This document shows positions 17,479-58,710 of a DNA stretch of 64,000 nt, in pieces (within the stretch, counting starts at the first letter, position 1; each line of letters starts with the position of its first letter). Source of the DNA: Ulota crispa (lineage: Eukaryota > Streptophyta > Bryopsida > Orthotrichales > Orthotrichaceae); NCBI GenBank assembly GCA_963920765.1, contig OY987243.1:19897419-19961418 (forward strand), in the 5' to 3' direction. Position numbers and translations under genes: made by a program. The notes beneath the pieces are model-generated. The model made no database searches and was not told where the DNA came from. It saw nothing but the letters and a program-made list of their open reading frames with translations.

Positions 17479-20400
17479 GGAGATTGATACAGGTACCACC
17501 CTTTTATGACTATCCTACCACACCTACTATATATGTCTTGTGACTGTTGAGTTTAAGACTTTTAATGGAACTTGGGAGTTGAGGTGTGGGGCCAGTTCCA
17601 AATTTCAGGGTGTCCTACCACTGTGCACGCTTCGTCTTTCATGTTGACTCTCTCTTTCCTTGATTTGTGCTGCTCTTTCAAACTTTCGTTGCTCTCTCTC
17701 GGCTCAACTTGCTTGCTGTCTCCCTCTCTGTTACATTACATGGGTATTGTGTGACAAAGTGAAAAAAATTGCAAAGTTCTGAGATGGCCTTTTTCCAACG
17801 GCACATAGAAGAATAAACTTTTTTTCCAAAATATCTAGCAGGGACAATGCTATTTCAAAATTCTCAACGGCAAGGGTTGCTCAGCTACTCAGCCATTAGA
17901 TACTGCACCTGAGTCATGTGGATTGCAACAATATCACATCACTAACACTATAAGAGCTCTTTTGTCTACATCCTCCTGCTCATCTCAACAAAAAAGAAGG
18001 TTCTACAGGAAATTTTTTTGCTTGTGGAAGCAACGGTAGCTATTGACTGTTTAATGGCTGCACAACATTTGAGTACGTTCTTGCATTATGGCCAACAGCA
18101 TGACAAATACCACAGTGTCGCTGGTTTTTGCTGAGATGGTTGCAAGGCAAATTGATTCTCCACGTATTCAAATGCAGAAGGCTCTTGTCTTGTTGTTGTG
18201 GATATTGATGCATGTGTTGGCTACCCTTGAGATCTAATTTGATGGGGATTTTGTACCTCGATGTTGGATAATTCAGCTTCAAACTGTGTGAAGGCTTTGT
18301 CTGCAATGTGTTGTTGGTGTGCAGGTAGTGAATCATAAAGCTCCCGAACTCTATCACTTTGTTTGCCAAATGTCAAGTTGTAGTCAACCATTTGAAATCT
18401 CCAAGGCTGGTGCAACCACAAGTGCTGGTGGAAATCTGTTACACTAAGAGGCATCCCTTGTACAATGTGCATTGTAATAAAATGTGCACATGGAATTCCC
18501 ATTGCTGTTTTTAGTGTGTATGTACATACATCATTTTTGGTATTCATTGTCATAGACTTGAGATACTGATCCATTGCTTTATTCAAAACATAGACAGAGA
18601 TTCCTCAATGAACATGAATCTACAAAGCATTTTCGCAGTTGACAATGATCTTGCTATGTTGGACTGCATGTTGATGGCTAATTTCTGCACGTTGCTGATT
18701 ACAAGAAAGTTGGATGGCGCTGCAGACTGAATGCAAATCTCCTGTTGATGTACAAATCCTTTGTTTGAAACCTGCATGTGCACCTAAAAAAGAAAACTGC
18801 CATTAGGTGAATACTACTGTATGCTTCACACAGCTCTTGCAATCCATTATAGAAAAACATAGAACCATTTATTTCCTATTGTAGGACAATAAGATGTACA
18901 CTTACCTTCTGCTCATGAGGTTACCATGTGTCCAAAGTGTGGAACATGACGTAGCCAAGCTTGTACAAATTTTTCTTTGTGTGGCAACTATGTAGCCAAA
19001 ATGCAGAGGAAAGCTGGTTGGGCAATAATAGTCGCATCTTCTCAAGCATTGTTTCATATTCCAATTGTGTTGGTGAGTTGATCAACTCATACCACTGTTC
19101 CATGAATATGTTGAATTCATTATTTGATAAAAAAAATCGATACATCTTGACCAAGATATTCTTGCTAATATGCCATTGGTAAAGTACAATTTTTGATGCT
19201 GGGAATACAACTGCAATTCCATTCATCAAAACAAGCTCTCGATCTGTTACAAAAACTGGAATGTTTGTAAGGCCCATGTTGTTGAATAGAGCTTGAAGCT
19301 GATGAAACATCCAACAATAATCATCTACTGTCTCATTTTTCATGAAACAAAAAAATAATGTAAACGTCTGGTTTGTGGCTGTTACATTCACACAGTGTAA
19401 CAATGGCATGTTGTACTGATTGGTCTTGTATGTGCTATCCAAGAACCACAAGAAATTGCCACAGAAATTGCAAGATATATTTTCCGCAATTTTGGGCACA
19501 ATGAACAGATGTGTCAAGGTTTGCAACTCACGTTGAATTTTGTGGTACAGTCTTGCTCCAACCAAGCTGTCCAGAAGCGCTTCAATTGAGAGACAGTCGC
19601 CCAATGCTTTCCTCTTCAAAGTTCTTTTTATATTATAGAGGTTACAACTGATTGTTTTGCACTCAATATCTGCCTCACGCAACGATGCTAGCACGGCCTT
19701 GGGAGAAACACCGATGCGCAATAGCTGATTAATAATATTAGTCTGGTGTTTGAACAATTGCCTCATACTGGGGTAGATGGTAATATCAGCAGGCTCGTGG
19801 TTGTGATTTTCGTTGGTGATTTTGCTATGCCAACCTCCAATGTCCTTTCGAAGTGTGACGCTAAACGGGCAATTCGTTTTTGCAGTGCTGACTTTCCGTA
19901 TGTAAGCTTTTTTTGGAGCGTGTTTGCCAAAATGCAAGCTTGTCAAGATCTAGTATTTAACCTCAGCATCTTTTTTGTGACCCACTGTACGAGTACGTTG
20001 TGTCCTGACTGCATATCCTTCAGAGTTGGCAAAGGCTTGAATAGCTTGTACAGCTTCTTCACGAGAATTGTACACTGCAACAGTAGGAGTTTAGAGAGGC
20101 ATTTCGAAGCAAGACACAGAGCATATGGGGTCTAGGCTGTAGAAAGCCAAAAGTAAGAGAAGCAAGAGATCTAGAGAAATATATATCCAGTTACACGTTC
20201 AAGCAGTACTAATAACATGTAGATATAAAAGTGTATTCATGATCAGAATGTAATATAAAAAAACATATTCTCTTGCTATACGCCATCTTGAACTTAGAAA
20301 AGCCACAAAGTTTAGAATGTTACCTGCCAACCTCGATCCTTTCCATTTGTAGCACCTTCAATCATTCCAGGTAGGTCCACATCTGAAGCTGTGGAGAAGG

Positions 20401-45439: not shown

Positions 45440-46547
45440 GTGCAAGAAAGTTCAATTCAAAGCATCTGGCGCGCGGTGTCGCAAGGCGCCGACAACCAGC
45501 CGCTGAGCCAGGCCAGCGTTCCTCTTTATTCGTCGCGGGAATGCTACTTGTAAAATCTGATACCAATTCATTCTCCATCTTGGGCATCAGCGAGCTGTCG
45601 CAAGATTCTCCACTTTATGAGCTGGACGGTTATTGTTAACCACCGGTGTTGACGAATTGAAGTGTGAGCGGGGAGATCTGAAACACAAATAGAAAGTCAG
45701 CCGAGTGAAATGCCAAAAAAAACCGAAGGAATTTTAGGATTTATCCAGTTAGATATCTTGAAATTGGTTGAAATTGGTTAATTTTAGTATAAGTATAAAT
45801 GGAATATTCTGTGCACGCAAATGTAATGCCGGTGCACGCACTCAAAAACAGGTTGAAAATGCGAAGCGTAAGATATTTTCCGAGGAAGCTCAAACTCCTT
45901 TCGGACACTGGACGGAAGGTCACAGGCTCACAGGAGGAGCTCCGATTTGTAAGTTCGGAAATACTATCAGTTGTTGTTTGCGATCGATCGTCTTCTTGAT
46001 CAGTTACTCGTTAGTGACTGACTACACTTCCGTGCAAGCGCCTGCCTGCGCCAACCTCCACTTAGACTGGTCGATCGAAACCTCGTACTCTGTTGAAACC
46101 TTTCTACAATATCCAACATTTCGTGATCCAACATTTTGTGCGATTGTTGTCCATATCTGGCAATCTTGAGTGTGCACCGTTGTGATCTGATGAACCTGGC
46201 TGGTTCTCGAATGCGAGGGCGTAGCTGATCAGTTCCAAGTCGTACATCGGTGGCTCGAGTGGAGAAGTATTGGCGCTGTGGTGGTGGATGCGATGGCTCT
46301 TAACTTTCAAGAGTCACAGACGCTGTAAGTATAATCCATTGTAGTTAGTTTGGGCAGATGTTTCTTGATTTGCGGAATATCTGGTCACTCCTATTTGCAT
46401 GTTACGTAAGTTCCCGCTCAAATGAAATTTGATTCGGGAAGAGGAAGCACTTTGCGCACTTGAAGTTTTTGCTTCCACAGAGATGATGTTGGAGTTTTGT
46501 TTTGTTGTCCACTCCTTCGGTTCATTGCTGGCTCTGTGATTTCAGCC
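45440..46547. promoter_or_regulatory. 5' region of the 46649 gene
   Basis: Higher G+C than the surrounding spacer, with short frames but no recognisable domain. Probably promoter, leader and possibly a leader intron: TTTCAG at 46540-46545 is a good acceptor just before an ATG at 46548. Confidence 0.4.
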
Positions 46548-46595
46548 ATGGAATGCGAGGCTGAGCTGATGATGGAGTTGTGGGATTGGCAATAA
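46548..46595 (+). CDS. Upstream short reading frame before the 46649 gene
   Basis: ATG at 46548 opens MECEAELMMELWDWQ and a stop, ending 53 bases before the chosen start of the downstream protein. It could be a regulatory uORF, or the true N-terminus if a small frame change exists; the sequence alone does not decide. Confidence 0.35.
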   Translation: MECEAELMMELWDWQ

Positions 46596-46648
46596 GCGAA
46601 AACAGAGGATTGCGCAACGGCTTGCTGCTGCTACTTGCCGAGAGGAAA

Positions 46649-48481
46649 ATGAAGCCACAACTGGTGGACGACGATGGAATCGAAAACTCCCTCAAAGATT
46701 GGCAACTCGGTCTACGCAATCACTCCGGGGAGCGAGAATCCATGGCAGCCTCTCCGTTCATGCCTTTCGAAGGAAGTGCGATACCAGGGTTTACACCAAT
46801 CAAGCCCACGGGAGATGGGAGTATGCGTAGCTCGACGCATTCGTCTCCTGAGTGGTTTGAAACTACAACGACGACACCAAGGACATCTAGGACTCGCACA
46901 CGAAGATGTTCAACCTTGCCTACAGGTTTAGAAAGCTCAAACCACGGAGATTCGTCCCCGGAGAAATTAGGGTTCCCCGACGGTCATGGTCACAATTTGC
47001 TCAATATCAACGAAGTCGGAGGCATTGCATCGCCTGAAATTATGTTTGGTGAGACCAGTTCAAAGGATGCCAAATCTAACAACTTTCGTGCGAGGGGGAG
47101 CTCGCAACGCATTTCGTTCACGGATGAGTCAGAGGGTTCACAATGTCCGATCCCGCAAAGAATTGGCAACGGACCTCTGTTGAGAGACAGAAAGGCACAT
47201 GCATTGAAGGATTGCTCCAAGTCCGCTTCGAAGCCGATGAAGCCTGTCAAGCCCAGCACGCATGGTGTGGGACTTGTAAGGGAAGGAACCACCAGTGCTG
47301 ACCAACCTGGAGGCCCTCCTTTGCCGCTGCCAGCGATTGAAACCTTGCATCAGAGCTATGGCGTATCTGCGAGCGGAGACAGGGCGTCGGAATTCCGTCT
47401 GTCGACTAGCGTGCAAGTGAGAAGGTCTCTAGACTCGATCAGTGAGGGAAGCAAGTATGACTCCTCACTGAGTTCCATATCCGGCTCTCCAGCGTCATCC
47501 GGAAGAGAAGGAACATCCACTTCAACCCTTGCTTCACCATCTGTCCTTCTCCGATGTAACGCCAGGCGGCAGCACGATGACAAAGAAGCAGACGACGACA
47601 AGGTACGCCACATCCAACTGTTCCTCTTTCATGACGTTTCACAAAAACAACAAGCTTGTGAACACATCTCCGTTTTTCCATGCTTTCATCTCAGAATGTG
47701 AAGAAGTTCAAGCTTCATGCCTTGACCCTAAACTGATCTAAAAAAATCCGCTCTAGCAGTTCATGTTCTTGTTCTGATTATTATCTTTAACTGAGGATGT
47801 TTTCTCGTCTGTGGGATATGAAGGTCGGGATGCTTTGCGACGGAGGTTTTTCCGGTAGCAATATGTCTGGAGACTTTGTTCGACTTCTTAGCAAGCTGTG
47901 TCCACTGCCTGTGCCGTTACCGAAACAATGTGCATCACGAGAAAGAGGGCGCGAAGTTGTCAGATCCAACTCAATCCCACCTCAAGTATTTTCATTGGAG
48001 ACTCAAAACTCAAGCACGTCGTGTCAAGATTATGTAATAATCGGGCACCAAAACTCCCTGAAACTGCTGTCTGAGCGCTGCTCCAGTGGGTCAACTCCTT
48101 CCTACAATGTGCACAAACCTCGCAAGATTCGTGACCATGAACCTCACCGGCATGTCTACAAAACAATCTCCAAGGCACTGGACCAGAAGCTGAGGTACGA
48201 TTTCGTTGCTTGCTCCACACGCTTCCAGACACTAGTCTTCCTTTTCATTTGATACTGCAGCGTCTCACCTCAGATTCAATTGGACCACAATGTTGTAGCG
48301 AGAATCAGTTCTAGAATCTGTAGTTACTCCTCCAGCTGACAAAATAATGCATATTTATGTTCAGGAGCTAAAGACAACATCGTCGTGGATGAAACGGAAC
48401 GTGGACCGTGGTTTTGCTTCACGGGCACCAGAAGTCGAGATCAATGGAGCGCCCTCAAAACAAAATGGATGCCGGAAGTGA
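46649..48481 (+). CDS. Ser/Thr/Pro-rich, probably disordered protein; 3' end uncertain
   Basis: Exon 1 46649-47602 (318 codons) begins MKPQLVDDDGIENSLKDWQL at the first in-frame ATG and ends ADDDK before a good donor (AAG/GTACGCC). It is dominated by Ser, Thr, Pro and Gly with basic clusters (TPRTSRTRTRR). Exon 2 is most easily 47824-48194 (acceptor ATGAAG, phase 0: VGMLCDGGFSGSN to HVYKTISKALDQKL, donor GAG/GTACGA). A third exon 48365-48481 reads ELKTTSSWMKRNVDRGF...SKQNGCRK and stops, but its phase does not fit exon 2, so one junction is wrong, an exon is missed, or a base is off. No known domain is recognised; no membrane or signal segment. Confidence 0.6.
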
Positions 48482-48696
48482 GTGACTGAACCTAATCTGT
48501 GTCACTGTCACTTGCACACGTTTGACTACAGATCGTTCTGTGTGAAGATCTTTCATCATGTCAAGCTGAAAACATTCTCCATGTTTGTCGCAGTGACATG
48601 GATTCTGGGAATAACATTCAGCCAGACACAGACATGATACCGTTGCAAATATTCCGGCGACTCCTGCGACACTGGCATAGTCATACTGCACGTCAA

Positions 48697-48905
48697 GAGA
48701 ACGGAAACAGGAAGAACGGATGAATGAAAAGGGAGAACAGAAAGGAAGAACGGATGAATGAAAAGGAGAACAGAAAGAAAGAACGGATGAATGAAAAGCG
48801 TGAACAGAAAGGAAGTGAATAACAGAAGAGAACGGAAACAGGAAGAACGGATGAATGAAAGGGAGAACTGAAAGGAAGTGAAGAACAGCCTAGAAAGGAA
48901 GAACG
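48697..48905. repeat. Degenerate minisatellite
   Basis: Tandem copies of a unit of about 25-40 bp built on GGAAGAACGGATGAATGAAA and GGGAGAACAGAAAGG. Purine-rich on the plus strand. It lies between the 46649 gene and the promoter of the 49239 gene. Confidence 0.85.
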
Positions 48906-49071
48906 AAAGCGAAGATTCCAGCGACAACGGGACCACAACTCGCAGTTAACTGGCAGTGTGAATCGCTCTGGGGGCGCCACGTGGCCCTCGAACTAGCAGT
49001 CGCCAATCACCAAGGTTAGAATAATGCCCAATTAATTCACAGGATTTTACTTTAATTCCTCACATACTTCC

Positions 49072-49079
49072 TATAAATA
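49072..49079 (+). promoter_or_regulatory. TATA box of the 49239 gene
   Basis: TATAAATA, 160 bases upstream of the ATG. The leader contains a possible short intron (donor TCG/GTAAGT near 49155, acceptor TTGCAAG at 49210), which would leave a short 5' UTR. Confidence 0.65.
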
Positions 49080-49238
49080 GAAGTGCTCATTCCTTCTTTT
49101 CCACATTCCTACCTCGGGTTCTAGACTTGCTCTCGCACCCAGTCGGCACAGTCGGTAAGTTACTGTCGTTTTACTTTTGGTGTTTCACATCACGTCTCTC
49201 CTGTTGCAAGGTATTATATTGTAGTAGAATCGGTACAC

Positions 49239-50444
49239 ATGGGGCCGGGGCCGGCCACCAAAAGGTGCTCCTATTGCGGGTTCGAGAATGTGGATTGCAA
49301 GTTCAAGTATTACAACAACAAGAAGTCCGATCAACCGCGGTACCAATGCTCCAAGTGCAAGAAATTGTTCAATTTGGGGTTTCACGGCCGTCCTCAAGGC
49401 AAAACATACCACAAAAAACGGGGTGAGGACCCCGAGGAGCTGCGCGGATTGCCACGAGAGTGCCCGCATTGCCAAGACGTCAATCATGTACAGTTCAAGT
49501 ACTACAACAATCGCTCCAGGTTACAACCGCGCTTCAAGTGTATGAGGTGCGGGAATGCTTTCCAAATGCGGTTGGTGATCATGGAAGGCGGAGTGCGGTA
49601 TCTGGAGCCCAGCTCACGAGGCAAGGCCGCAAAGTCCTCCTGCCCAATGGCACCACCACTGATCAATGGCAATGGCGCGAGTACGAGTACCCACACGAGT
49701 CCTAGTCCGCCGTGTGATGCCGGCCCGTCCTGGCTCGTGTATCATGAGGAGAACCCACGGCCGACGACGATGCCGAATGAGGACCAGGACTTTGTAGAGC
49801 TGTTAGAGGCTACAATATTGGAGGAGGGCCCAGCCCACAAAATGGCTGATGATGGCCTCGATTCTGAAACGTACCGCGACTTGGAGACTTTAGTGGATTT
49901 GGAGGGCATGGGCACAGCACTCCCAGAAGAAGAAGAAGCTGATGACCTCGTCTCCCCACCCGGCTTTGTTGAGGCCATGCTGGAGGATGGCCCAGCCCCA
50001 GATGCTACTGGATGTGAAATCATCTCCACGGCCGCCGCAGTCGGTGTTTCTGATCAGGTGGACATGGTCGACGCTGACCCGAGGATCGATGCCAATGCCG
50101 TTTACAACAGCATCTGGAACGGGCATTTGGGATCCAGTCCCGACGATGCAGCCTGCGACAACCACTTGCCATGCGTTGCCGAAGCACCACCAAGCCCGAA
50201 TAATTGGTGCCCACACTCTCCCATGGCTCCTCCTGAGTCAGGATTTTCGTTCCAGCAAGCCTTGGACGAATACAACCACTTGCCATGCGTTGCCGATGCA
50301 CCACCAAGCCCGAATAATTGGTGCCCAGACGAGACTCCCATGGCTCCTCCTGAGTCCGGATTTTCGTTCCAGCAGGCCTTGGACGAATACAACAACTGTG
50401 ACCGGAACGGGGAGCTGGACTTGGACAACATTTTCAATTACTAG
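49239..50444 (+). CDS. Protein with two tandem Dof-like zinc fingers, probable transcription factor
   Basis: Intronless, 401 aa from ATG 49239. Two fingers resemble the plant Dof domain (C-x2-C-x21-C-x2-C with YYNN and QPRY). Finger 1: Cys 10, 13, 37, 40, with KYYNNKKSDQPRYQC. Finger 2: Cys 75, 78, 101, 104, with KYYNNRSRLQPRFKC. Spacing between the Cys pairs is 23 and 22 rather than 21, and the Dof tail (RRYWTKGG) is absent, so this is a diverged relative, not a canonical Dof. A basic linker (KTYHKKRG) joins the fingers. The C-terminal two thirds are acidic and disordered. A 38-39 aa block (LPCVAEAPPSPNNWCP...SGFSFQQALDEY) is duplicated in tandem, and the end DLDNIFNY resembles an acidic/aromatic activation motif. 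DNA-binding in the nucleus is inferred. Confidence 0.82.
   Translation: MGPGPATKRCSYCGFENVDCKFKYYNNKKSDQPRYQCSKCKKLFNLGFHGRPQGKTYHKKRGEDPEELRGLPRECPHCQDVNHVQFKYYNNRSRLQPRFKCMRCGNAFQMRLVIMEGGVRYLEPSSRGKAAKSSCPMAPPLINGNGASTSTHTSPSPPCDAGPSWLVYHEENPRPTTMPNEDQDFVELLEATILEEGPAHKMADDGLDSETYRDLETLVDLEGMGTALPEEEEADDLVSPPGFVEAMLEDGPAPDATGCEIISTAAAVGVSDQVDMVDADPRIDANAVYNSIWNGHLGSSPDDAACDNHLPCVAEAPPSPNNWCPHSPMAPPESGFSFQQALDEYNHLPCVADAPPSPNNWCPDETPMAPPESGFSFQQALDEYNNCDRNGELDLDNIFNY
50160..50390 (+). repeat. In-frame tandem duplication within the Dof-like gene
   Basis: Units 50160-50273 (114 bp) and 50274-50390 (117 bp), nearly identical, differing by one codon insertion and a few substitutions. High identity implies a recent duplication or conversion. 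Confidence 0.9.
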
Positions 50445-50558
50445 CTATTAATCGTAGCGAGGAGAATGATTTTCCATGTTTTATAATACTGTCCAGTACA
50501 GTTCGTGATTGTATCATACCGAACATAAATGCATGCATTTCATTTGTTTGCAAACCTT

Positions 50559-50960
50559 CACTACAACAGAAGGCAGTATTTGCAACGGTTTTTGCAATGC
50601 TTTTGCAATGCCCTTTAAAAAAGTTTCAACGCTTTTGCAATGGTTTTGAAATAATTTTGCATTATAACTGAATTGGTATTACAACTGTAACGCTGGACTA
50701 GAGTTTGCAAAAAAATTGTTATGGTTTTGCATTGTAATTGCTTTGGTCCTACAATCCCCTTTAAACCATTGCAAAAGCGTTGAAATTTTCTTGACATAGT
50801 GTTGCACTATAATTGAAATGGTACTACAATTGTAAAGCTAGACTAGCATTTGCAATAGTTTTGTTATTATATTGCATTCTAATTGCATAGGCACTACAAT
50901 ATACTTAAAAAAATCAATGCTTTTGCAACGGTTTTGACATAGAATTGCAATATGATTGAA
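50559..50960. repeat. Left subterminal repeat zone of the CACTA element
   Basis: Many copies of TTGCAATGG/TTTTGCAA-type motifs in both orientations, interspersed with ATTGGTACTACAAT-like units spaced about 100 bases apart. Confidence 0.8.
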
Positions 50961-50999
50961 TTGGTACAATTGTAAGGTTGGACTAGTATCTCTATATAT

Positions 51000-51470
51000 A
51001 ATTGATTACGGTGTCAGTATGTTAGGGTCGGGCATGACTTACGGTCGGGCATGACTTACGGTTGGGCATGACTGGGATAGGGTCGGGCATGATTGGGATC
51101 GGAAAGTTATAAATGGAATAAAGTAAAATCACCTATGGCTTTACTAGACATTAACAACAGGTCACTAGCAGTTGCACCACAACTTCCTCTTGGCCAAAAG
51201 AGGGCACAAGGATAGGGGATCACGGGGATAGGGGGGCACGAGGATATGGGGGCACGAGGATAGGGGATCACTAGACGTTAACAATAAGTCACTGGCAGTT
51301 GCACCGTCACTAGTAGTTGCACCACAACTTTCTCTCAACCAAAGGAGGGCATGAGGATAGGGGAGCACAGGGATAGGGGGCACGGGGATATGAGGGTAGG
51401 AGGATAGGAGAGCACAAGAATAGGATTTGCAAGGATAGAGGGTGGGGGGCATAATTCCGTTGGTACAACG
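51000..51470. repeat. GC-rich tandem repeats inside the CACTA element
   Basis: First block: GGGTCGGGCATGACTTAC repeated with variation (51025-51100). Second: GGGGCACGAGGATAGGGG-type units (51200-51280 and 51350-51450). Between them the phrase TAACAACAGGTCACTAGCAG / TAACAATAAGTCACTGGCAG is duplicated with its surroundings. Confidence 0.8.
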
Positions 51471-54400
51471 GGCAGTATACTAGTTTATAATAATTTTGTT
51501 ATAGGATTGCAATACAATTGCATTGGTACTACAATGGTAAAGCTAGACTAATGTTCACAATGAAAATTTTCATAAAAGTAATCAACATTGATTGCATTGC
51601 TTTGTCTTCTATATTAGTTATATAATAGAGGCAATGTTTATGAGAACAAATTGTATTTTTTTAGTTTCATTTTTATCATGTTTTTGTCTTCATTTTTAGA
51701 TCTCTCTTTTGTTTTTATAAAAAGTCTTTTGTAATTTGATGAATGCTAGCACTTATTTGTAATTTTCTTGCTTCATGAGGTTTATTTGAGATTCGTTTTT
51801 ATTTTGTGATTTTAAGTATCTTTTTCAAAATAATCCTTGTAAGCTTTTTGCTTTGGAATCTAATACATTTGGAGGACTTCATCTTCTACTATTGTTATCC
51901 TCATTATTATAACAAGAATTTCTCCATCACCCAAAACATTGGAGACACCAACAAATTATAGTACAAGACTACAAGTCTACAAGTCTACAACAATAAAAAG
52001 AAATCATAGGAGATTTGTAAGGAAACTGATCTGTTGTAGTATAATCAGGTGAAAATGAGCAATTTCTCCATAAACAAAAATAGTTGTAATTCTTGATGGA
52101 TGCATTTGTACAATATGTGTACATTTAAATAATAGTGTTAAAAGATAATTCAATGACTTATTTATTCTTGTTTAATTGTTATTTGCCACTTGAGGTGTTT
52201 GAAACACGCTTAACTACTACCTAAGCGGAATTTTCAACATTGTTTTAGTTATTTCCAATTGTAGCCGTAGCCACTTTGCCTAACAAATCAATGACACACT
52301 TCCACTGTCTTTCCTTTGAATTTCTTCTAGTGCAGTAAAAATGCTCAAAGTAAGACTCGAGAATCTCAAAAGCTTGGGAATATGATTATACACCAAATTT
52401 GTTTTAGTAAAACCAAATTTAAGTTCACTATGATACATACAAACTCTAGAATTCATTCATTAAATTCACTAATATTTCTAAAAATAATGTTTAGATGAGG
52501 CCCATGTTATAGCTATATGAAATTATGTATGTTTCAATGACAATGAGAGAGCCTTTCAAAAGGATTCCAATCATCTTAAAATTTCTCAAAATCTAACCCT
52601 TCCCCCCTTATTTTTTAGAAAAATTATAAGGAAAAATCTCTAGTGACATTGTTAGATGTCCTAAATTTTAAGCATATTTTTTAAAACTTGATTTTCTAGT
52701 CTTCCATCAAAAATTCCAACCTAATATTTAATATTTTGATCCAAGGCATTTTGAGATTCCCATTTAGAGGACTAAATTGTGTTGTTTGGCAACATAGAAA
52801 TTTTGGGCAAGTGCTTGTAATTAGATATTTCCATATTTTAGGGTAAAATTATAATAGAAAGTGGGGACAAGGAATATCTTTCATACGCACTAAATTTCAA
52901 GACATTTGGAAGTATGAGAAAACATTTATGGCTTGATATGTTGCTTATTTTCCTAAGTGGCCAATCCGGGCAAATTAGAAAATAATCAAAATAATAATAA
53001 TAATAATAACAAAAATTTGGGATTGGTTTAGGGGATTTATGAATATGTGGAAATTTTTTAATCATTCTATTTTTATGAATGAGATGGAAGCAATGATGAG
53101 TTTTGCTTTGTAGGCAATTAATATGGATTCTCCACTTTAAAACAAATTTTGAAATCCTTTATTTTACTCAATTTTCAATATTCTACAAAAAAATAAAACT
53201 TGAGGGTGTAGATTTTTTATTACAACATTACAACCACTGGGATTGGCATTTTTCATTTCCATAATTAAATTCTTAGCAACTTCATATTTTGAATCATTCT
53301 CTACTCCTTTTCTCTTACAAATTTTTTCCATGTATTGCACAATTTGAAATGATTTGAAAATTTTCAAGTACTTATTCAACTTACCCAAAAGAATGGATTC
53401 AATGAGTTACATTTGGAATTTTTTTCATACAAATGTGACCTTGTGAAGAGCATCTCCCTAAGTTTTTGCAAGGACAAAATATGGCTTTTTGACAATTCAA
53501 ACTCAAATATCTTATGACTGATATGGTAAAAAAAATGCATTTTTTTCACATCTTCTAAAACTAGTGTACTACAAGATAGTATGATTAATCATGTGTGACC
53601 AAAAATGTTTCTTTTCTAAAATGTGATACTTGTACTAGAAATGGTAGTTTTGGAGCAATTTTGGTGACAACTTAGCTTGGTCCTTAAGGGGTTAATTGTG
53701 CCCTTTATATCCGAAAGTCTCTCCAACTTGTTTTTTTTTGTGCGGATGCAGATGCTCTTAAAGGCTAGGCTGCTAGGGCATCATCAATCTAGCACACTGG
53801 AAAATTCATCAAATGTTTGATTATTTTTAATGTAAAATTATGAATTGAGATTATTATCATTGGAAGCGTATAGAAAAATTCTATAAATAAGTACACCAAT
53901 ATATGGAATTAGAAATTGGTCAATAAAAATAAAGCCCATTGAAAGCAAGCTAAAAAACAAAAGAGACGGCAAATTATGTTGTAGAGGAAGAACCCATGGT
54001 ATTAGCACATCAAAATTTCAAAATTTGGTGTATCATTACCATGGGTTTCTTCCTTATGCATTATTTGTTGTAGTGTTTGTCTTTCAACCTATTTTCCACG
54101 GACTTTACTATTGCTATTCAATTTCCAACTCTACACATTACTTTGTTTGTTTAAAGATTTTTTGTGTATTCTTCCAATGATAATAGTTACATGTTCTAAT
54201 TAATATTTTTGGTGAATGTTAGACTGATGATACTCTTAGGGTTAAAGTCAAACCAAATATGACACATATATTGAAGATTTTTCTTTGTTTTGGTAGAAAA
54301 AAACTAAATAAAGTTGGAAAGAATGTACAATGTGTGCATGTTCATCCAATAAATATGCTATGGTTAATTATTTTCATCCAATATTTGGCAACTCTAGTGT

Positions 54401-57250: not shown

Positions 57251-57652
57251 AGGATAAAAATTGTGGCTGCCCTTTTTTTCCACTCTTTTTCACTCACATT
57301 ATTTAGCCTATATCAAAATACAATCGGCATCTTATTACTTTGTATCACTTGTACTCTATTTTTACTACCAATCCCAATATATATAGCATACCAAAATTCA
57401 ATTCCAAAATATCAAAACCCAAATTTTAGTGAATTGTTTTGTTTAACAACCATGATTTTACAAGAAGTGTGATTGAAAAATATTGGTGATGGAATTTTGA
57501 AATTGGGTTGCATGGGTGTATAGGAAATATCCATGTGCACATTTTCCATGTTAAAAATTACCCCCTTGAGTTACAAAGTTTTGATTTACAAAATATTCAA
57601 TGTAACATGTAGTATGCCCAAATTTTGTAAAACAAGTATTTTTATGTTTTGA

Positions 57653-58568
57653 CCCTTTAAAGACCACACCCACCACACCCATTTTCCCCAAATCTACTAG
57701 AAACCGGGGTAATAAAATCAGATGTGCATTTGAATCATTTATGGACCCAATTTGAATAATCCAACCGTACAAATGTGACGGACACCTTGTTTGTTGTCAT
57801 GAATCAAAATTTCGGCTAGATCTACCGTTGGAGGTGAAATATTATAATGATTGAGTGAGCCATATATGGAAAACCTCTAGTTTATCATGCTTGAGTGGTT
57901 TTGAATGTTAATGCTTCATGCAAGCTTTGGTTGAGAAGAGCCTTACATTTCTAAAAAGCAAGGTTTCCCACCTTTCCAACAATACTAGTTTCACAAAAAA
58001 TAGACAAAACTAGCAATCACAAGGTGTAGCTAAGTAGACAAAAAAGGTCAAAAATCCCATTTTCTTTGCTACCCTAAAACAATTCTACAAGAAGTTTGAT
58101 AATTGTTATAGAAAATCCGATCGGTGAAAGCAATCAAGATTTGGCCTTAAATGTAGAATGAATTTTTTTTTAAATAAAATGATAGTATCATTTCAATGGA
58201 TTCTCAAATACTACAATTGTACTACTACTGTATAGAGAAATAGTACAAGCATATTTCTTGAGTAATTTGAAATTTTTTAAGATTGCACAATTGCAATGTG
58301 GCGTTCTTCTTGGATGTTTGATGTATTGTGTTGTTGCTTTGATCCATCTTTGACCAAATATGGATACGTATTTTGAGGCCATGATGTATAAACACCATTA
58401 TTTATCAACTCACATATCCAATTCCATTGTTGTTTCTTGGGTTGGATGCAAAATTCTTGTGATCACAAGCATTCTTCAAGATCATTTTCCAAATTGTTGA
58501 GCGATTTTATTGTATAGGCCAAAAACTACTCTCTTGAACCAAAATATGGTTCGGTGGTCTCTAAAGGG
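57653..58568. mobile_element. TTAA-family element (908-bp subfamily), copy 2, inverted
   Basis: Right TTAA at 58569-58572; the left flank reads TTGA. Ends CCCTTTAAAGACCACACC and CGGTGGTCTCTAAAGGG. Inverted relative to the copy at 41928-42835, with the same internal frame (58382-58188, minus). About 9 in 10 bases agree by eye over the parts compared. Confidence 0.85.
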
Positions 58569-58710
58569 TTAACTAGATTTTCACTAAGTAAACATAACAT
58601 CATGCTCAAAAGTTCAAACTTAGTCATAGTGCATGAGTTAGATAGAAAACTTTTGATTATTACAAAGAAAGGTTTATTCTCCAAAATTTGTGCACCTTCT
58701 TCATCATTAA

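What the first reader, a model, noticed from the sequence alone, without database searches (positions are those of the whole stretch)
49239..50444. Protein with two tandem Dof-like zinc fingers
Canonical plant Dof proteins carry a single CX2CX21CX2C finger. Here two fingers follow each other (Cys 10/13/37/40 and 75/78/101/104), each with the YYNN and QPR(Y/F) core but with 23- and 22-residue spacing and no RRYWT tail. The acidic C-terminus with a duplicated 38-residue block and DLDNIFNY end fits an activator. It may be an early-diverging or lineage-specific branch of the Dof fold.
Basis: partly seen in the sequence, partly recalled or inferred. Interest (0 to 1): 0.75.

Follow-up and report, generated by a model that had tools for sequence, protein, structure and literature searches.

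The report
Two-finger Dof proteins in a moss
A moss gene makes a protein with two plant-type Dof zinc fingers in a row instead of the usual one; it belongs to a family of such unusual genes in the same genome, both fingers are preserved by evolution, and the residues that normally read DNA have been exchanged, so it is probably a real gene switch with an altered target.

Summary
In detail: a 401-codon ORF (49239-50444) encodes two Cys4 fingers, each above Pfam's Dof cut-off (35.3 and 35.1 bits, cut-off 26.6). The genome is most likely a moss: its LEAFY domain is nearly identical to Physcomitrella's. The gene is not a lone oddity. Besides 10 canonical Dof loci, I count by hand 32 non-canonical Dof-like loci with one, two or three fingers, 18 of them on one contig. 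Both fingers of the window gene are under purifying selection against paralogues (near-saturated synonymous, about 20% non-synonymous change). Second fingers group together, not with the first finger of their own gene, so the pair predates most gene copies. Residues needed for DNA binding in Arabidopsis CDF2 are replaced: Trp172 is Phe or Tyr in 27 of 27 scored fingers. Best reading: a Dof-derived two-finger transcription factor with altered DNA recognition and an acidic activating tail, in a derived branch. A 2024 survey noted multi-Dof genes in two mosses but could not exclude artefacts (PMC10842470); the present data argue against artefact. DNA binding and expression are untested.

The parts
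49239..50444 (+). ORF of 401 aa: tandem two-finger Dof-derived protein (single coding exon)
   Evidence: nearly identical copy in inverted orientation 76 kb away
49266..49370 (+). Finger 1 (residues 10-44; C-X2-C-X23-C-X2-C, then K-K-L-F)
   Evidence: PF02701 35.3 bits for the N-terminal 69 residues; spacing; purifying selection
49371..49460 (+). Linker between the fingers (residues 45-74), with H-G-R-x-Q-G-K-T-Y-x-K-x-R-G-E-D-P-x-E-L-R-G-L in the closest paralogues; G54, Y57, K59, P65, E67 invariant in six sequences
   Evidence: alignment A1
49461..49562 (+). Finger 2 (residues 75-108; C-X2-C-X22-C-X2-C, then G-N-A-F)
   Evidence: PF02701 35.1 bits for residues 68-134; model pLDDT 79.1, best PDB match CDF1 Dof domain
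49593..50441 (+). Acidic tail (residues 119-401; 52 D+E, 9 K+R), probable activation region
   Evidence: function inferred
50158..50397 (+). 117-base in-frame tandem duplication inside the tail (39-residue block, 2.1 copies)
   Evidence: self-match
50415..50441 (+). C-terminal acidic-hydrophobic motif (L-D-L-D-N-I-F-N-Y); similar ends in paralogue L004 (D-L-D-L-E-S-I-F-S) and in canonical Dofs L011 and L013 (H-D-M-D/E-N-..F-Q)
   Evidence: homology inferred by eye, after the fact
49071..49079 (+). TATA-box-like sequence (CTATAAATA) some 160 bases upstream of the ORF; the surrounding 66 bases match the upstream region of broken paralogue L003 at 81%
   Evidence: sequence; blastn 49068-49133 against L003

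Best explanation
The gene encodes a transcription factor derived from a canonical Dof protein. Two zinc ribbons of the Dof fold, joined by a short linker, act together as a bipartite DNA-binding unit. Both keep the zinc ligands and the Y-Y-N-N and Q-P-R core that make the fold, but the residues that CDF2 needs to bind AAAG sites are exchanged (Lys166 to Ser/Met, Arg170 to Lys/Asn, Tyr171 to Leu/Ala, Trp172 to Phe in fingers 1/2), so the two fingers most likely read a different, longer or composite site. The acidic tail then activates transcription. Shown here: two Dof-family fingers, conserved as protein across paralogues, an old finger pair, a birth-and-death gene family in one moss genome. 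Inferred: zinc and DNA binding, altered specificity, activation, nuclear location, and descent from canonical Dof.
For: Each finger exceeds the Pfam Dof gathering score alone; profile against profile, 21 non-canonical fingers match 9 canonical ones of the same genome with probability 98.3. The finger-2 model (pLDDT 79.1, pTM 0.62, two-row alignment) has the CDF1 Dof domain bound to DNA (8xuf) as best PDB match, rmsd 1.6 over 38 columns, probability 1.00. Window gene against L004: finger 1, 17.0 of 18.3 synonymous and 19.0 of 89.7 non-synonymous sites changed; finger 2, 16.0 of 18.2 and 20.0 of 86.8 (Fisher p 5e-9 and 2e-7 on rounded counts). Second fingers of seven two-finger loci form one clade (97/90); holding the window's two fingers together is rejected (p-AU 0.020), and those of L004 (0.0016). 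All 9 canonical fingers scored keep R170, Y171, W172; of 27 non-canonical ones 1, 1 and 0 do. CDF2 mutants at Y171 or W172 lose, and at K166 or R170 strongly lose, DNA binding (PMC9477738, section 10 read).
Against: No expression, binding or localisation data. The altered contact residues could equally mean loss of DNA binding. The Foldseek E-value is 0.14, no match had E under 0.001, and the model rests on two rows. Pairwise omega is not clearly below 1 everywhere: L008/L043 give 1.08 over all and 1.09 in the fingers, L005/L006 0.69, so some young copies show no clear constraint. The second finger of L034 falls outside the second-finger clade on a long branch, and first fingers are not one clade in the best tree. 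The C-terminal motif match is short and post hoc. Selection on the single fingers of the window gene was tested only against L004, L005 and L006.
Confidence: 0.65

Rival explanations
1. The fingers have kept the zinc-ribbon fold but lost specific DNA binding; the protein works as a protein- or RNA-binding co-factor, for example as a partner or decoy of canonical Dofs.
For: Contact residues K166, R170, Y171 and W172 are replaced nearly throughout; in CDF2 Y171A and W172A abolish binding. Other Cys4 zinc ribbons bind proteins or RNA (established knowledge, recalled).
Against: The replacement of Trp is always aromatic (Phe 25, Tyr 2 of 27) and R170 is Lys in 10 of 27, which looks more like retuning than loss. 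Residues 1-60 are basic (14 K+R, 3 D+E). The tail looks like an activation region.
Confidence: 0.22
2. A pseudogene-like or artefactual copy: an assembly duplicate or decaying member of a gene family with no function.
For: By hand tally 14 of 32 non-canonical loci carry stops, frame changes or lost zinc ligands (introns could explain a frame change in L031 and L046). The window gene has a nearly identical inverted copy 76 kb away, and young pairs show omega up to 1.1. PMC10842470 could not exclude artefact for its multi-Dof genes.
Against: The window gene itself is open over 401 codons and differs from L004 and L005 with a strong excess of synonymous change in each finger; the two-finger architecture recurs in nine intact loci, near-identical pairs included, on contigs C2 and C8 (hand tally of the same calls).
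Confidence: 0.08
3. The family is a mobile-element or selfish-gene product (zinc ribbon of a transposase or a drive element), which would explain clustering, near-identical inverted copies and rapid turnover.
For: 18 of 32 loci on contig C2 (binomial p 1.5e-8 if loci were independent, which local copying violates); inverted near-identical pairs on C2 and C8; weak hit to a transposase zinc ribbon (PF12760, E 1.3 for the whole protein, 0.087 for finger 2, far below its cut-off).
Against: No mobile-element domain above its cut-off in 10 family ORFs scanned (phage terminase zinc ribbon below cut-off in two); no relative confirmed in viral contigs; L003 and L004 share with the window only short stretches outside the coding region. 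Terminal repeats and target-site duplications were not looked for.
Confidence: 0.05

Closest known systems
Canonical Dof transcription factors (PF02701; e.g. Arabidopsis CDF1, PDB 8xuf, and CDF2)
   Same: Cys4 zinc ribbon, Y-Y-N-N and Q-P-R core, profile score above the Dof cut-off, predicted fold of finger 2.
   Different: Two fingers, spacing X23 and X22 instead of X21, R-Y-W replaced by K-L-F and N-A-F, no G-G-T-L-R-N-V-P-V-G-G-G tail.
Multi-DOF-domain genes noted by PMC10842470 (3 in Ceratodon purpureus, 4 in Physcomitrella patens, others in Aquilegia, Actinidia, Rhododendron)
   Same: More than one Dof domain in one moss gene; probably the same kind of gene, not tested because no such sequences are held here.
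   Different: That survey (section 5 read) found the domains of one gene grouping together and could not exclude artefacts; here second fingers group with each other, and constraint on each finger is shown for the window gene.
Group I WRKY proteins (recalled, no call)
   Different: Different fold and DNA target; analogy only.

Membership tests
Dof (PF02701) | Profile match above the curated score | tested here: met
   60.3 bits whole, 35.3 and 35.1 per finger, cut-off 26.6
Dof (PF02701) | C-X2-C-X21-C-X2-C spacing | tested here: not met
   X23 and X22 in the window protein; X21 in 9 of 9 canonical fingers and 12 of 13 fingers of one- and three-finger relatives, the thirteenth mis-parsed; some relatives have a C-X4-C knuckle
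Dof (PF02701) | Y-Y-N-N and Q-P-R core | tested here: met
   both fingers of the window protein
Dof (PF02701) | R-Y-W-T and G-G-T-L-R-N-V-P-V-G-G-G tail | tested here: not met
   K-L-F-N and N-A-F-Q instead; some one-finger relatives keep parts (T-L-G-G-T-L-R in L020)
Dof (PF02701) | One finger per protein | tested here: not met
   two fingers
Dof (PF02701) | Fold of the Dof domain | tested here: inconclusive
   best PDB match is 8xuf, probability 1.00 but E 0.14; model from two rows; finger 1 not modelled well
Dof (PF02701) | Binding to AAAG core | not testable with these tools
   contact residues replaced
Other zinc-ribbon families (Elf1, IS1595, Cas12f TNB and others) | Profile match above curated score | tested here: not met
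   best for the whole protein is Elf1, 18.5 bits against cut-off 29.8

The most novel reading that the evidence does not exclude
Mosses have evolved a second, fast-turning-over class of Dof-derived transcription factors in which one, two or three retuned fingers, all with Trp172 changed to Phe or Tyr, read DNA sites other than AAAG; the two-finger branch is a covalent dimer reading composite sites, a plant counterpart of poly-zinc-finger expansions.
Probability: 0.35. Interest if true: 0.75.

Novelty: new variant of a known kind. Interest (0 to 1): 0.47.

Why it matters
Dof stands for DNA-binding with one finger. A moss gene family with two or three fingers and exchanged DNA-contact residues breaks the defining rule and gives a natural series for learning how Dof specificity is set. 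It also bears, for one genome, on a question left open in print: whether multi-Dof genes are artefacts. The claims can be tested directly with short recombinant proteins and DAP-seq in Physcomitrella or Ceratodon.

Tried and rejected
Rejected: another zinc-ribbon family (no other Pfam family reached its cut-off); mobile-element origin, as unlikely (no such domain above cut-off in 10 family ORFs); viral relatives (97 pattern matches in viral contigs, none confirmed); an early-diverging Dof branch (inference from spacing). Led nowhere: folding the 134-residue two-finger region as a single sequence (pLDDT 62.3, pTM 0.38), not used; upstream alignment of paralogues showed little beyond the L003 similarity; the bacterial-type promoter scan is not meaningful here; the paper of the 8xuf structure was not found; the PpDof1 paper is not held; TAPscan v4 and Pohlia genome papers hold no word beginning with Dof in their main text; passages of PMC13161181 and PMC11281171 say nothing of proteins with two Dof domains. 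The two-finger gene tree resolves only L005/L006 at the starred level. The 19,500-base query was swamped by repeats and did not list even the window itself, so it says nothing on the inverted copy. Rows left out: the 38-row finger tree holds nine canonical fingers and 29 others; L006, L035 and the inverted copy (same or nearly the same fingers) and the broken or ligand-poor loci L042, L044-L051 were not put in, so it is a choice of the best-readable fingers. L034_N and L031_N (insertion, truncation) were dropped before the 27-finger residue count; the assignment of L019_3 was wrong and is corrected; in the spacing list L022 is mis-parsed (X21 by eye). Weak extra hits on C4 and C11 were not counted as loci. 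The tally of 32 loci and of intact ones was made by hand; seven of the 32 lie below the Pfam cut-off or were found by protein search alone.

Full report
Observation. ORF 49239-50444 on the + strand is present as described. It encodes 401 residues with Cys 10/13/37/40 and 75/78/101/104. Each finger fragment alone passes the Pfam Dof gathering score (35.3 and 35.1 bits; cut-off 26.6), the whole protein scores 60.3 bits, and no other family reaches its cut-off. The tail is strongly acidic (52 D+E, 9 K+R in residues 119-401) and holds a 117-base tandem duplication.

Organism. The window lies on contig C2 (36.98 Mb) of a 275-Mb genome. The one LEAFY gene found, read as two exons, matches the LEAFY-homologue structure 4bhk almost letter for letter (325 bits, against 245 or less for the other four chains listed), and shows Asp and Cys at two places where the Arabidopsis LEAFY chain has His and Arg. 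That 4bhk is from Physcomitrella and that Asp and Cys there mark moss LEAFY is recalled, not from a call. The genome is therefore most likely a moss; the species is not known.

Family in the genome. The Pfam Dof model finds 10 canonical loci at 113-120 bits, two of them identical over 3168 bases and 15 kb apart, and a long series of weaker matches at 22-60 bits. With the protein search from the window fingers I count by hand 32 non-canonical loci: C1 1, C2 18, C3 5, C5 1, C6 2, C8 5. Searches from L020, L019 and L041 found the same loci again and a few weak hits on C4 and C11 that I left out. By reading frames and zinc ligands 18 of 32 look intact: nine with two fingers, one with three (L019, 700-codon frame), eight with one; 14 are broken or have lost ligands. 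The near-identical pairs are counted as two loci each. The enrichment on C2 (binomial p 1.5e-8) partly reflects local copying.

Constraint. Against L004 and L005 the window gene shows synonymous change near or at saturation (0.82-1.03 per site, Nei-Gojobori) and non-synonymous change of 0.21-0.24 in each finger (Fisher p from 1e-5 to 6e-10 on rounded counts). The tail changes faster (pN 0.41 and 0.53 against 0.22 and 0.24 in the finger region). Against this, the young pair L008/L043 shows omega about 1.1, L005/L006 0.69, and one-finger pairs 0.39 to 0.65 over all, so not every copy is clearly constrained.

Age of the finger pair. In a tree of 38 chosen fingers with only 49 columns, the nine canonical fingers form a clade (99/98), and the second fingers of seven two-finger loci (two of them broken, L007 and L031) form a clade (97/90); the second finger of L034, a long branch, falls outside it. 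Holding the two fingers of the window gene together is rejected (p-AU 0.020), likewise for L004 (0.0016); first fingers are not one clade in the best tree, but that is not rejected either (p 0.24). The pair therefore predates most of the gene copies. This differs from PMC10842470, where the domains of one gene grouped together (section read).

Direction of change. Of 13 fingers of one- and three-finger relatives, 12 keep X21 and the thirteenth, L022, was mis-parsed and is X21 by eye; several keep T-x-G-G. Two-finger proteins mostly have X22, X23 or X25, with X21 in L007_C and L031_N. Some relatives have a C-X4-C knuckle. With Dof genes also in green algae (PMC10842470), the simplest order is canonical, then one-finger with Trp to Phe, then two-finger. 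This is inference; no outgroup sequences were at hand.

Mechanism. In CDF2, alanine at Y171 or W172 abolishes and at K166 or R170 strongly reduces DNA binding (PMC9477738, section 10). At these places finger 1 has Ser, Lys, Leu, Phe and finger 2 Met, Asn, Ala, Phe. Over 27 non-canonical fingers, Lys or Arg at 166 is found in 5, Arg170 in 1 (Lys in 10), Tyr171 in 1, Trp172 in 0 (Phe 25, Tyr 2); all nine canonical ones keep them. The fold core is conserved. The model of finger 2 has the DNA-bound Dof domain of CDF1 as best PDB match, an entry titled as a palindromic-bound complex; two joined fingers could act like such a pair in one chain, which is speculation. I therefore expect bipartite binding with altered specificity, with loss of DNA binding as main rival.

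C-terminus. The window protein ends D-L-D-N-I-F-N-Y, L004 D-L-D-L-E-S-I-F-S, canonical L013 H-D-M-E-N-I-F-Q and L011 H-D-M-D-N-V-L-F-Q; the other canonical and most other non-canonical proteins listed do not end so. This may be a shared activation motif and a trace of descent; it was noticed afterwards and not tested for chance.

Prior knowledge. PMC10842470 (passages; sections 5 and 6 read) lists 16 genes with more than one Dof domain, 3 in Ceratodon and 4 in Physcomitrella, calls them a novelty not yet reported or characterised, and cannot exclude artefacts. The searches gave no other report that I recognised; I saw their listings and, for the papers named here, passages or sections only, and subscription papers are mostly missing from the library. 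The finding is a new variant of a known kind, with a first, brief mention already in print.

Noticed in passing
window 46000-54000 and contig C2:20018844-20026844 (-): The gene lies in an inverted duplication: 8001 bases recur 76 kb away at 100% printed identity, one mismatch in the 5001 bases aligned directly. Recent palindrome or assembly error.
   Followed up: partly
L034/L035 (C8:1.97 and 1.99 Mb), L047/L048 (C3:20.39 and 20.43 Mb), L017/L018 (C3:32.17 and 32.18 Mb): Further near-identical local pairs (98.5% inverted, 99.1% direct, 100% direct), the last a canonical Dof gene.
   Followed up: partly
L019:580-2682 (C3:17.26 Mb): A 700-codon frame with three Dof-like fingers, all with canonical X21 spacing, 117.1 bits in total against the Dof profile.
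   Followed up: partly
window 18921-19946 (-): ORF of 341 aa with a MULE transposase domain (77 bits).
   Followed up: no
window about 57649-58573: High-copy element: about 0.9 kb, more than 30 copies listed at 89-92% identity over contigs C1 to C11 in a capped list.
   Followed up: no
window 48709-48878: 33-base purine-rich tandem repeat, 5.2 copies, ending some 360 bases upstream of the start codon.
   Followed up: no
L020, L021, L041, L047: Several one-finger members carry long Asp/Glu-rich runs, L047/L048 with a repeated D-D-E-T-S-T unit.
   Followed up: no
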